From: Saururus chinensis
Lineage: Eukaryota > Streptophyta > Magnoliopsida > Piperales > Saururaceae
DNA: 64,000 bases
Assembly (NCBI GenBank): GCA_035235625.1
Contig: CP141146.1
Location: 17,478,501-17,542,500 of the forward strand
Reading direction: 5' to 3'
The position numbers and the translations under genes are program-made. The notes beneath the pieces are model-generated. The model saw only the letters and a list, made by a program, of their open reading frames with translations, did not search any database and was not told the DNA's origin. This document shows positions 24,948 through 37,442 of this stretch, in pieces. The number at the start of each line of letters is the position of its first letter. Position 1 is the first letter of the stretch.

Positions 24948-25135
24948 TCAGGAGAAGTGGACCCCATTGCCGGCGGTGGAGCCCAGGAGTAGAGCATTGG
25001 CGTGCTCCTGCACTACCTTCCAAGTCATCTTGACATGGTGCTCCTCCGTCAGGGTGGCCCCCACTGCAAACCGGATCATGTACACTCCGCCCACCACCGC
25101 GTGCGTCATGTACGCCTTACCCGACGAGTTGATCG
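24948..25135 (-). pseudogene. TYDC: Tyrosine/DOPA decarboxylase, severed C-terminal fragment
   Basis: Minus-strand reading gives the last ~60 residues of a group II pyridoxal-phosphate decarboxylase: SGKAYMTHAVVGG, then RFAVGATLTEEHHV and a W/EHA-containing end, stopping at 24948-24950. It follows exactly on the last residues of the 5' part (INS at 36060-36075), so the two are one gene of about 518 codons split by the Mutator-like insertion. The 9-bp duplication AGTTGATCG occupies 25127-25135 here. Confidence 0.92.
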
Positions 25136-25571
25136 CGCTTCGGATCGGCTGTGCAACACTCCCACCCGGGTGGGTGGGAGTGCCCAATAAAAAGTAGCCA
25201 CGTCCTCTTTCTCTCATAATGTCAATAAACCGGGTTTCATACAATTTTTGTTTAAACCAAAATGAAGAAATTTTGGTTTTCATTCTAACCCGTGGGTCTC
25301 TCCAGGGCTCCCCACTTAATCTTCCTCCCCTAAATCGCCACCAAAATCCCCTTCCCCCCGGAGGAGGTGCTCTCATGCCACCACCGCCTGGGATAGATTC
25401 CACCTCTGCAATCTACAGTCTGGCGGAAGACTCGTATCTCCTATCCATAGCCCCCCTAATCGCCGGAGTCGCCGGAGCCGGAGGAGGTGTCGATGGTGGC
25501 TCTGACGCACGCCCAAGAGAGCAGTCCTCTTCCTCTCCTAAATCCCCATCTGTGGCCCTTCTCTTCCCCTC

Positions 25572-26147
25572 ATGGCGTCATCCTCATCGACGTTTCTCTC
25601 CTTCCTCATCTCGCTCCATCGCTGCCGTCATCTGACGTCCATGGCCGGCCCGGTCCCACCTCTCTCCGACTGCCCAGATTTCAGCTTCGCTGTCGCCTCT
25701 CGCCCACCCATGGAGGCCTTGCGACTCCCCTCCCTTACTCATTCTCACTTCATCTCTTCTTCTTCTGCTGCTGCTTCTTCCTCCCCTTCTTATTCCATCC
25801 TTCGCTCTGCCTCTCTTCTCTGCCACCTCCCTCGCCAAAAACAAGGAGGAGGGCTTCATCACACCTCGCTCCCGCTCCCAGGACTTCAACGCCTGGTACC
25901 TCGACGTGATCTCCGCTGCGGAGCTCTCCGACTATGGCCCTGTTCGCGGGACCATGATCATCCTCCCTTATGGCTACTCCATCTGGGAGGCCATCCTAGT
26001 ACCCCTTTTTCCCCAGCTGTCATTTTTTTTATATCACCTGGGAGTTTTTCTCTACCTCACTCATTTTCTGTATATTCTCTGCTTCTGCAGGACTACTTGA
26101 ATGTCAAGTTCAAAGAGACTGGTCACAGCGACATGTACTTCCCACAT
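25572..26147 (+). pseudogene. Captured prolyl-tRNA synthetase 5' exons (left arm)
   Basis: The ATG at 25572 opens a Ser-rich, transit-peptide-like stretch. After a frame change near 25840 the class II prolyl-tRNA synthetase start follows: [21 protein letters not shown] sequence (with TPRS and [10 protein letters not shown]), [25 protein letters not shown] donor at 25999 and AG acceptor at 26089-26090 lead to exon 2, [18 protein letters not shown] (26091-26147, GTATGC donor). These match the organellar (OVA6-type) plant enzyme. The catalytic core and anticodon domain are absent, so no enzyme can be made. The captured piece includes the gene's 5' end, as is usual for Pack-MULEs. Confidence 0.88.
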
Positions 26148-27200
26148 GTATGCGTGCATTTACTTTCAATTGGGTGGGGGGCTGCGGTTTGTGGTCAATT
26201 GATTCAAATTGACTGGGAAAATAAGGTCTTTCTGCCTATGCCTTTGTCCCCTATTGTTGGCGGCACCCTAAAGGATAAGCCTTGAAATTTGATGACTTTT
26301 TGTTGAGAAACTGCTTACTCTCTTCAATTTATATACCTGTCAATTGTGGATCACATGAGTATAACTTAAAACATATTGCCCTTCTGCAAGCATTACAGAT
26401 GATTGGTGTCTATGGAAAATTTGCTTATGAGTAAGCTGCCATACTTGTTACCTCGCATGTATTAAATCAAAGGTTGAAACTTTTACAAACAGTAGTTGAT
26501 CTGGTGTATCTGCTTTTTTTTCAGTTGAAATATTATGCACATGCTGAGATAAGAATTAATATTTGTCTTCATGATAATTACTCTGCGGACTTCTCTTCCT
26601 GCTATATGTGTCCAAGGGTTTACAATTTTACTGATACCTGATGAAGAGAACTTATTGCTAATGATTTTTTGTATCCATTCTTCATGAAATACTGCTTCAG
26701 GAATTGTACTCCATTCTATTGGTTTTGTATGGCTATCTGTATAAAATATGTAACTATTAAGACTGGAGGATGGATTACACGAGCAAGAAAGCACACATCA
26801 CACACACTTTCATAACCTATGATAAATGAAGATGCATGTGGTAGAAAAATGGGACTCACACTGTGGTCCCCATGGTACTATGGTCATAAGAGGATTAGGG
26901 GACTTGGCAAATCACAGGGCTCATGACTATTTATGATGATGTAGAACCTTATATTATTGCCTCCTTGAGGGTTGCTTTAGTAAAGACTCCAGGTGTAACA
27001 ATCCTGCCACAAAGTGCTCATATGGATTTTCATTTTGATTATTAGAAGAGTCAAATGGTGGTATAGAATCCTGCTACCAACAAGTGCTCATATTTTTTTT
27101 CTTCTTGTACAGTGTAATCTCAACCGTACTTTGCAAGATGATTCATGGTCCGGGCAGCTTCAGAGTTTCTTTGCTAGTATATGGAAGTCATTTGTCTACC

Positions 27201-35051: not shown

Positions 35052-35627
35052 ATGTGGGAAGTACATGTCGCTGTGACCAGTCTCTTTGAACTTGACATTC
35101 AAGTAGTCCTGCAGAAGCAGAGAATATACAGAAAATGAGTGAGGTAGAGAAAAACTCCCAGGTGATATAACAAAAATGAAAGCTGGGGAAAAAGGGGTAC
35201 TAGGATGGCCTCCCAGATGGAGTAGCCATAAGGGAGGATGATTATGGTCCCGCGAACAGGGCCATAGTCGGAGAGCTCCGCAGCGGAGATCACGTCGAGG
35301 TACCAGGCGTTGAAGTCCTGGGAGCGGGAGCGAGGTGTGATGAAGCCCTCCTCCTTGTTTTTGGCGAGGGAGGCGGCAGAGAAGAGAGGCAGAGCGAAGG
35401 ATGGAATAAGAAGGGGAGGAAGAAGCAACAGCAGAAGAAGAAGAGATGAAGTGAGAATGAGTAAGGGAGGGGAGTCGCAAGGCCTCCATGGGTGGGCGAG
35501 AGGCGACAGCGAAGTTGAAATCTGGGCAGTCGGAGAGAGGTGGGACCAGGCCGGCCATGGACGTCAGATGACGGCAACGATGGAGCGAGATGAGGAAGGA
35601 GAGAAACGTCGATGAGGATGACGCCAT
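35052..35627 (-). pseudogene. Captured prolyl-tRNA synthetase 5' exons (right arm)
   Basis: Mirror of 25572-26147: start codon at 35627, donor near 35200, exon 2 at 35052-35108. It differs from the left copy by a handful of substitutions (e.g. GPVPP/GLVPP, DFSF/DFNF, AAASS/AVASS) and shares the frame change. Confidence 0.88.
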
Positions 35628-36002
35628 GAGGGGAAGAGAAGGGCCACAGATGGGGATTTAGGAGAGGAAGAGGACTGCTCTCTTGGGCGTGCGTCAGAGC
35701 CACCATCGACACCTCCTCCGGCTCCGGCGACTCCGGCGATTAGGGGGGCTATGGATAGGAGATACGAGTCTTCCGCCAGACTGTAGATTGCAGAGGTAGA
35801 ATCTATCCCAGGCGGTGGTGGCATGAGAGCACCTCCTCCGGGGGGAAGGGGGATTTTGGTGGCAATTTAGGGGAGGAAGATTAAGTGGGGAGCCCTGGAG
35901 AGACCCACGGGTTAGAATGAAAACCAAAATTTCTTCATTTTGGTTTAAACAAAAATTGTATGAAACCCGGTTTACTGACATTATGAGAGAAAGAGGACGT
36001 GG

Positions 36003-37442
36003 CTACTTTTTATTGGGCACTCCCACCCACCCGGGTGGGAGTGTTGCACAGCCGATCCGAAGCGAGTTGATCGACTCCAGCAGCCTCCTGTTGAGCACGT
36101 TCGCCTCCTCTTCACTGGCGTCGGCCATGGACGGCGGGAGGAGGCGGAAGCAGACCATGGCAAAGTTCCGGGGCACCACCAGCTCGAACCTTCTATCCTT
36201 GGCCACCATCTCCTCCAACATCTTGGCCATCTTCACGTGGTTCCGAAGGAAGGTGCGCAGGTTGGCCACCCCATAGCTCCTTAGCACCATCCACAACTTG
36301 AGAGCTCTGAACCTCCTACTCAGCGCGACCTGCCAGTCCTTGTAGTCCACCACCTGCTTCGACTCGGTGGCCTTGTTCCGGAGATATTCCGGGTTGGTGG
36401 AGAGGGCCGTCACCAGGCTGTTGGGGTCCTTGACCCACATGCAGCAGCAGTCGAGGGTGGTGAAGAACCACTTGTGGGCGTTGAAGCTCAATGAGTCGGC
36501 ATCGTCCACTCCGTCGATGAAGTGCCTGAACTCCGGGCAGATGCAGGCGCTCCCGGCGTAGGCTGCGTCTACGTGTACCCACATGCCGTACTCCTTGGCC
36601 ACCTTGCTGAGGGGCCCAACTGGATCCACCGAGGTGGAGGAAGTAGTGCCCACGGTGGCGCAGAGGAAGAGTGGGAGCAGGCCGTTGGCCAGGTCCTGCT
36701 CGATGGCGGTGCGGAGATTGGCTGGTGAGAGTCCAAAGTGATAGGACTTGGAGGTCCTGACGGCGCGGAAGTTGGCCGGGTGGATCCCGGCGATCTGAGC
36801 CGCCTTTTGGAGGGCACAGTGGGTTTGATCGGAACCGTAGACGACAAGGCGGCCGATGTGCTCTCGGCCAATGCGATTAAGGAGGCGGTCTCGGGCGGCC
36901 GTGAGGGTACAGATGATGCCCTCGCAGGTGGTGCCTTGCAGGACACCACCACCCCCGCCAGAGAAGAGGAAGGAGGTGGGGAGCTTGAGCATCTTACCCA
37001 GCCAGTCCATGACGATTGTTTCAAGCTCAGTGGCGGCCGGGGAGCTCATCCAGTTGAAGCCCACAACGTTGAAGCCGGTGCTGAGCATCTCCCCCAGGAA
37101 GCCGGCGGTGCTGCCGCTGGAGGGGAAGTAGGCGAAGTAGTTGGGGCTCTGCCAGTGGGTGATGCCCGGAACAATATGGGACTGGACGTCTTGGAGGATG
37201 GACTCAATGGGCTCGGGGTGGTTGGGGGCAGAGTCCGGGAGGAGCTTCTTGAGGTACCCAGGCTCCACCTTGCTGCGAACTGGGTACTTGTCGATGTCCC
37301 GGTAGTAGTCAGCAAGGAAGTCGACGACCATATGGCCCTGCCTCCGGAACTCCTCCGGCTCCAAGGGGTTCTTCAGCTCCAGGCCTGCTGCTGCCGTCTT
37401 GTTCCCTAACAAGACATCATCCTGGACCTGGAAGCTCCCCAT
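36003..37442 (-). pseudogene. TYDC: Tyrosine/DOPA decarboxylase, main part, truncated by the Pack-MULE
   Basis: The ATG at 37440-37442 opens a single exon with 460 native codons; the frame then runs 19 codons into the element end and stops at 36003. It is a group II pyridoxal-phosphate decarboxylase that removes CO2 from tyrosine/DOPA to give tyramine/dopamine, a cytosolic entry step to alkaloids and hydroxycinnamoyl amides. Visible: [10 protein letters not shown] (41-50), [13 protein letters not shown] (129-141), [13 protein letters not shown] (162-174), His208 (cofactor stacking), VDAAYAG with Asp292, NAHKWF with the cofactor Lys324, and loop Tyr353, which marks decarboxylases as opposed to aldehyde synthases, which have Phe. 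Everything up to the insertion is intact. The lost ~58 C-terminal residues are conserved, so the product is probably inactive. Tyrosine versus tryptophan preference is inferred from overall similarity. Confidence 0.93.

What the first reader, a model, noticed from the sequence alone, without database searches (positions are those of the whole stretch)
25127..36073. A 10.9-kb Pack-MULE splits an otherwise intact tyrosine/DOPA decarboxylase gene
The sequence shows a 9-bp duplication AGTTGATCG at both borders, perfect inverted ends, and the two parts of one decarboxylase reading frame ending and resuming at the same codon. The rest of the gene (cofactor Lys324, loop Tyr353, promoter TATA) is undamaged, so the knock-out looks recent and may be polymorphic. 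It could remove one tyramine/dopamine-forming paralogue in this plant.
Basis: partly seen in the sequence, partly recalled or inferred. Interest (0 to 1): 0.9.

Follow-up and report, generated by a model that had tools for sequence, protein, structure and literature searches.

The report
Gene-carrying jumping element breaks plant decarboxylase
A 10.9-kb mobile DNA element that carries pieces of other plant genes, and has unusually long mirror-image ends, has jumped into the tail of a tyrosine/DOPA decarboxylase gene and cut off the end of the protein; this is a well-known kind of event with one unusual feature, the length of the mirror-image ends.

Summary
A 10,929-bp element (25136-36064) sits between two copies of AGTTGATCG, the only two in the window. 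It splits a minus-strand plant tyrosine/DOPA decarboxylase (TYDC). Of 120 relatives examined, 118 matched both gene pieces, and in 113 of those the pieces meet without a break. As it stands the gene encodes 479 aa: residues 1-460, 19 foreign residues and a stop. It loses the conserved last 58 residues.

The element meets the structural definition of a Pack-MULE: 9-bp duplication, inverted ends, captured host-gene fragments, no transposase domain in the frames scanned. Each arm carries the same decayed piece of organellar prolyl-tRNA synthetase; glutathione reductase pieces lie in the centre. If transcribed, the arms could form a long hairpin RNA, as proposed for maize Mu killer; that is inference.

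"Recent" is plausible. "Polymorphic" and a metabolic effect could not be tested; the genome search did not complete. Verdict: real, a new member of a known kind, moderate interest.

The parts
25127..25135 (.). target-site duplication AGTTGATCG, left copy
   Evidence: only two copies in the window, none on the other strand
36065..36073 (.). target-site duplication AGTTGATCG, right copy
25136..28469 (+). left arm of the extended terminal inverted repeat (first 89 bp perfect)
32731..36064 (-). right arm of the extended terminal inverted repeat, 98.9% identical to the left arm
25710..26449 (+). captured organellar prolyl-tRNA synthetase pieces, left arm (matches to residues 1-126 and 227-250 of the Aristolochia californica protein; frameshifted, one in-frame stop)
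34750..35489 (-). the same captured prolyl-tRNA synthetase pieces, right arm, with the same frameshift and stop
27204..27462 (.). tandem array of a 22-bp palindromic unit, left arm
33737..33996 (.). tandem array of the 22-bp palindromic unit, right arm
31437..31987 (.). third, diverged array of the 22-bp palindromic unit, centre
28470..32730 (.). centre between the arms (4,261 bp)
28685..30361 (+). captured glutathione reductase pieces, collinear (residues 109-181, 187-209, 319-375; weak, frameshifted match 285-316), residues 210-284 not found
36063..37442 (-). TYDC 5' part, residues 1-460, with Lys324 and Tyr353 (last two bases of codon 460 come from the element but spell the same residue)
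36003..36062 (-). 19 foreign codons and stop read from the right arm
24948..25126 (-). TYDC 3' part with stop codon, conserved C-terminus, separated from the rest of the gene

Best explanation
A non-autonomous Mutator-like element carrying host-gene fragments (a Pack-MULE), with terminal inverted repeats extended to 3.33 kb over captured prolyl-tRNA synthetase sequence, transposed into codons 457-460 of a TYDC gene that is one open frame, and duplicated 9 bp of target. The gene now encodes a 479-residue protein that lacks its last 58 conserved residues and is probably inactive. Shown here: element borders, duplication, arms, captured fragments, interrupted frame and premature stop. Inferred: movement by a MULE transposase supplied in trans, loss of enzyme activity, and recent date. 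The two arms share the same prolyl-tRNA synthetase frameshift and stop, so the inverted duplication (or homogenisation) of the arms probably came after the capture had decayed. Template switching or gap repair inside the element is a likely cause (inferred). If transcribed through, for example from the TYDC promoter, the RNA could fold into a 3.3-kb hairpin and feed siRNA production (inferred, untested).
For: 9-bp duplication, only pair in the window. Arms 98.9% identical over 3,336 columns. Gene pieces meet exactly at the duplication in 113 of 118 relatives with matches to the 3' piece, of 120 examined. 0 of 135 columns conserved at 99% or more depart in the 5' part. PF00282 at 9.1e-117. 65-82% identity among the 120 listed of 8,000 matches, many named tyrosine or tyrosine/DOPA decarboxylase. 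Prolyl-tRNA synthetase (1.5e-15 to PDB 1h4q; best E-value Aristolochia californica chloroplastic/mitochondrial proline--tRNA ligase, 76% over 90%). Glutathione reductase (best of 3 matches Aristolochia californica, 76%). Identical in-frame stop in both arms. No transposase domain in the 20 element frames scanned.
Against: No second copy of the element and no empty allele were seen; the genome search did not complete. The superfamily assignment rests on duplication length and inverted-repeat length, not on a transposase or on related ends: the terminal 23 bp, with up to 6 substitutions, occur only at this element's two ends in the window. 4 of 181 and 6 of 202 well-conserved TYDC positions depart, above the median relative (19 of 111 and 13 of 111 relatives have as many or more), so some decay or relaxed constraint before insertion is possible. 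In 5 of 118 relatives the pieces did not abut.
Confidence: 0.9

Rival explanations
1. Assembly artefact: two unrelated contigs or a mis-resolved inverted repeat were joined at this place, and the gene is intact in the plant.
For: 3.3-kb arms at 98.9% are a classic place for assembly error (recalled); no reads could be examined.
Against: An exact 9-bp duplication at both borders and continuity of the reading frame across the insertion are not expected from a misjoin. The arms differ at 36 columns, leaving out one column caused by my cutting the left arm one base long, so they are not one copy used twice. An error inside the arms could flip or change the centre but would not remove the insertion.
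Confidence: 0.04
2. Foldback-type element or a member of another TIR superfamily rather than a MULE.
For: Very long inverted arms with internal tandem repeats resemble Foldback elements (arrays). Tm1 of root-knot nematodes is described as Mutator/Foldback with 9-bp duplications (PMC3169594, passages), and Galileo, a P-superfamily element, extends its TIRs by recruiting internal sequence (PMC3573991, passages).
Against: Only about 260 of 3,334 bp of each arm is tandem repeat, and part of the rest is captured host sequence. The 9-bp duplication fits MULEs (8-11 bp; PMC6446971, passages).
Confidence: 0.08
3. The allele is leaky: the element is spliced out of the TYDC pre-mRNA or the truncated protein keeps activity.
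For: The 5' part is open and nearly unaltered at conserved sites. Splicing of DNA transposons out of exons is known from maize elements (recalled).
Against: The C-terminal piece is matched in 118 of 120 relatives, so it is probably needed. A 10.9-kb intron with self-complementary arms would be unusual (inference). An AATAAA lies on the TYDC strand at 36014, 50 bp inside the element, and may end the transcript.
Confidence: 0.1

Closest known systems
Pack-MULEs (non-autonomous Mutator-like elements carrying gene fragments)
   Same: 9-bp target duplication, long inverted ends, fragments of more than one host gene, no transposase domain found. [quoted passage not shown]
   Different: Arms of 3.33 kb against 14-500 bp in one survey (PMC6446971, passages) and usually 100-500 bp (PMC4858842, passages). 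Total 10.9 kb against the usual 2-3 kb for Pack-MULEs (PMC9168764, passages).
Mu killer (Muk) of maize
   Same: Inverted duplication of internal sequence at a Mutator element, next to a gene whose transcription could read through; a hairpin RNA and siRNAs were proposed (PMC3440606, abstract and passages).
   Different: Muk duplicates part of the mudrA transposase gene; here part of the duplicated sequence comes from a host gene. Transcripts and siRNAs are unknown here, and the same paper reports that silencing plants had short antisense RNAs while flanking-gene read-through transcripts were found in plants that failed to silence.
Tm1 and Galileo (long-TIR, Foldback-like elements)
   Same: Long, variable TIRs with internal tandem repeats; Galileo recruits internal sequence into its TIRs (PMC3169594 and PMC3573991, passages).
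   Different: Animal elements. In the passages seen, their TIRs are built of element sequence and tandem repeats; captured host genes in the TIRs are not mentioned there. The longest Galileo TIR in the passages is about 1.26 kb.
Plant tyrosine/DOPA decarboxylase (PDB 6liu, 6eem)
   Same: The 459-residue 5' part matches over residues 2-439 (6liu, E 4.1e-241) and 18-459 (6eem, E 3.6e-236); cofactor Lys and loop Tyr present.
   Different: Interrupted at residue 460 by the element; C-terminal 58 residues detached.

Membership tests
Pack-MULE / Mutator superfamily | target-site duplication of 8-11 bp, often 9 | tested here: met
   9-bp exact, only pair in the window; 9 bp gives symmetrical ends, though the two sites also share the 2 bases before it
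Pack-MULE / Mutator superfamily | long terminal inverted repeats | tested here: met
   89 bp perfect, 3,334 bp at 98.9%
Pack-MULE / Mutator superfamily | carries host gene fragments | tested here: met
   organellar ProRS in both arms, glutathione reductase in the centre
Pack-MULE / Mutator superfamily | no transposase of its own | tested here: met
   no transposase domain in 20 element frames given to Pfam; not every short frame was given
Pack-MULE / Mutator superfamily | ends related to an autonomous MULE of the same genome | tested here: inconclusive
   terminal 23 bp found only at its own two ends in the window; genome search unanswered
Foldback element | inverted arms built mainly of short tandem repeats | tested here: not met
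   array of about 260 bp in each 3,334-bp arm
Mu killer-like silencing locus | long inverted duplication inside a Mutator-type element | tested here: met
   arms; 22 perfect runs of 24 bp or more cover 3,259 bases
Mu killer-like silencing locus | transcribed, makes siRNA, silences the source gene in trans | not testable with these tools
   no RNA data; parent gene of this genome not available
Tyrosine/DOPA decarboxylase | PLP-dependent decarboxylase domain with catalytic Lys | tested here: met
   PF00282; K324, K in all 112 aligned rows
Tyrosine/DOPA decarboxylase | loop Tyr (decarboxylase) rather than Phe (aldehyde synthase) | tested here: met
   Y353; Y in 92, F in 17, C in 3 of 112 rows; the meaning of the residue is recalled
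Tyrosine/DOPA decarboxylase | complete C-terminal region | tested here: not met
   last 58 residues separated by the element

The most novel reading that the evidence does not exclude
The element is a natural hairpin gene. The TYDC promoter reads into the 3.3-kb arms, and the fold-back RNA yields siRNAs that act in trans on the plant's own organellar prolyl-tRNA synthetase gene: a Mu-killer-like locus built from a host gene, with essential-gene silencing as the cost of the insertion.
Probability: 0.08. Interest if true: 0.7.

Novelty: new member of a known kind. Interest (0 to 1): 0.35.

Why it matters
It is a clean example of a gene-carrying transposon breaking a specialised-metabolism gene (tyramine/dopamine formation) with the target site still readable. 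The captured gene sits in both long arms, which gives a concrete test case for whether Pack-MULEs make siRNAs against the genes they captured, a conflict discussed in a recent review (PMC13317346, passages).

Tried and rejected
Transposase inside the element: none reported by Pfam in the frames given. MULE-like frames were seen only outside it, at 40.3-42.5 kb, and the element's terminal 23 bp has no other match in the window even with up to 6 substitutions.

Naming the plant: the TYDC tree (window plus 37 of the 120 listed relatives) does not place it; no well-supported set of up to half the rows holds it. Aristolochia californica has the best E-value for the two captured genes and the sixth-best for TYDC. 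This suggests a magnoliid, perhaps Piperales, but does not show it.

Dating by arm divergence: rejected as a clock. 32 substitutions and 5 gap columns over 3,337 columns (one gap column comes from my cutting the left arm one base long), partly clustered (27672-27687, 27994-27996), point to patchy conversion or template switching, and inverted ends need not be identical at insertion.

Identity of two further coding-like pieces in the element (63 residues near 28.2-28.4 kb and the frame 30665-30976): no Pfam family at its curated cut-off. Rfam: no match at gathering thresholds in 24000-38500. One 26-base TIR pattern in viral contigs: no match. Papers: 'Pack-MULE' with 'magnoliid', none; 'tyrosine decarboxylase' with 'transposon insertion' and 'alkaloid', two papers listed, judged irrelevant from title and abstract start and not read. 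The works that PMC3310237 cites for extended TIRs were not identified (one search failed on term format and was not repeated).
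Full report
What was claimed. A 10.9-kb Pack-MULE at 25127-36073 splits an otherwise intact tyrosine/DOPA decarboxylase gene.

Observation. The 9-mer AGTTGATCG occurs exactly twice in the 64-kb window, at 25127-25135 and 36065-36073, and its reverse complement not at all. For two given sites the chance of nine matching bases is about 6e-6 at this base composition. Between them lies a 10,929-bp segment whose ends are inverted and identical for 89 bp. The inverted match does not stop there. It runs for 3,334 bp on each side (25136-28469 and 32731-36064) at 98.9% over 3,336 columns (one search shows the same arms in four pieces). 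A separate alignment gives 37 differing columns of 3,337: 20 transitions, 12 transversions and 5 gap columns, one of the latter caused by my cutting the left arm one base long.

The gene. The minus strand from ATG 37442 encodes a plant aromatic amino acid decarboxylase: PF00282 at 9.1e-117; PDB tyrosine/DOPA decarboxylases at 4.1e-241 and 3.6e-236; 65-82% identity among the 120 listed of 8,000 matches. As it stands the frame ends after 479 residues, of which 460 agree with the gene and 19 are foreign, with a stop at 36005-36003. The sequence left of the element encodes the missing C-terminus. Searched as two separate pieces against the 120 listed relatives, the C-terminal piece matched 118. 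In 113 of 118 the pieces, extrapolated from the ends of their local alignments, abut with an overlap of exactly two residues, as the duplicated 9 bp predicts; the other five gave gaps of 20 to 53 residues. A script that joined the flanks gave one 518-residue frame.

State of the gene. Against 111 of the 120 relatives (those of 480-560 residues), the 5' part departs at 0 of 135 columns conserved at 99% or more. It departs at 4 of 181 at 97% (median relative 1; 19 of 111 have as many or more) and at 6 of 202 at 95% (median 2; 13 of 111). The catalytic Lys324 is shared by all 112 rows. Tyr353 is Tyr in 92, Phe in 17 and Cys in 3 rows; that Tyr marks decarboxylases and Phe aldehyde synthases is recalled. 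The gene was therefore probably functional or nearly so when hit. The small excess of departures is compatible with slight relaxation or with a divergent lineage.

What the element carries. Each arm holds pieces of an organellar prolyl-tRNA synthetase. The catalytic start matches the ProRS of PDB entry 1h4q (1.5e-15; a Thermus enzyme, recalled) and plant proline--tRNA ligases, many named chloroplastic/mitochondrial; the best E-value is Aristolochia californica, 76% over 90% of the piece (174 of 181 candidates at E 0.001 or better, 120 listed). Matches cover residues 1-126 and 227-250 of that protein; the stretches between the pieces look like introns and a missing middle. Both arms share the frame change between the N-terminal stretch and the catalytic part, an in-frame stop (FAYE*AA) and the same bases at the expected first splice donor, which look altered to me. 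The arms were therefore probably duplicated, or made alike, after the captured gene had decayed. The centre carries collinear pieces of a glutathione reductase (best of 3 matches Aristolochia californica, annotated cytosolic, 76%; residues 109-181, 187-209 and 319-375, plus weak frameshifted matches in 285-316; Pyr_redox_2 above its cut-off in one piece and below it in another). A 22-bp palindromic unit, GTTGGAGCAATATTGCTCCAAC, is tandemly repeated in both arms and, more diverged, in the centre. No transposase domain was reported in the 20 frames scanned; not every short frame was given.

Classification. Duplication length, inverted ends, captured fragments and lack of a detected transposase meet the structural definition of a Pack-MULE. 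Published MULE TIRs are 14-500 bp in one survey (PMC6446971, passages) and usually 100-500 bp (PMC4858842, passages). Acquired sequence integrated into extended TIRs has been noted (PMC3310237, section 4.2 read). The element is thus an extreme member of a known kind. It is not Foldback in the strict sense, because tandem repeats make up only about 260 bp of each arm.

Mechanism. Shown: borders, arms, captured pieces, interrupted frame. Inferred: insertion by a MULE transposase in trans; truncation and probable loss of decarboxylase; arm extension by template switching or gap repair, processes proposed for animal Pack-TIR elements and considered open for plant Pack-MULEs (PMC8277862, passages). 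An AATAAA on the TYDC strand at 36014, 50 bp into the element, could end the transcript. If instead transcription reads through, the RNA could fold over 3.3 kb, with 22 perfect runs of 24 bp or more covering 3,259 bases. Mu killer was proposed to work in this way, although a later study of it found flanking read-through transcripts in plants that failed to silence (PMC3440606, passages). Nothing here shows transcription, siRNA or an effect on the plant's own ProRS.

Limits. The plant is not identified: the tree does not resolve the gene, and the nearest proteins point to an early-diverging angiosperm, perhaps a magnoliid. The search of the window's own genome was tried nine times and never answered, so copy number, empty alleles, parent genes and TYDC paralogues are unknown. 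Age is uncertain because arm identity is not a clean clock.

Verdict. The event itself is ordinary. The 3.3-kb arms with a captured host gene in both of them are the feature worth a second look.

Noticed in passing
24478-24559 and 24936-25014: The last codons of TYDC (VQEHANAL...GNGVH) and some downstream sequence are present a second time, 458 bp further downstream (82 columns, 90%; translation), with 376 bp of GGGTCGGG-rich sequence between the copies; looks like a separate small insertion or duplication.
   Followed up: partly
27204-27462, 31437-31987, 33737-33996: Tandem arrays of a perfectly palindromic 22-bp unit, three arrays, all inside the element (29 matches with up to 3 mismatches in the window).
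   Followed up: partly
40331-42530: Minus-strand remains of a MULE-like gene: plant mobile domain (PF10536, 1.2e-24), weak zinc-knuckle and weak MULE transposase matches (below cut-off).
   Followed up: partly
13926-14363 and 57477-57866: Retrotransposon pieces: aspartyl protease (RVP_2, 5.3e-23) and SH3_Tf2-1 (1.1e-15).
   Followed up: no
13943-16344 / 50627-53018 and 16339-17188 / 56401-57252: Long direct repeats (2.4 kb at 92% and 0.85 kb at 96%) that suggest related retrotransposon copies in the same window.
   Followed up: no
30665-30976 and about 28242-28436: Two further coding-like stretches in the element with no Pfam family at its cut-off; possibly pieces of other captured genes.
   Followed up: partly
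27672-27687, 27994-27996, 26384-26385, 26835-26836: Differences between the two arms are partly clustered in short patches, more like patchy conversion or template switching than independent point changes.
   Followed up: partly
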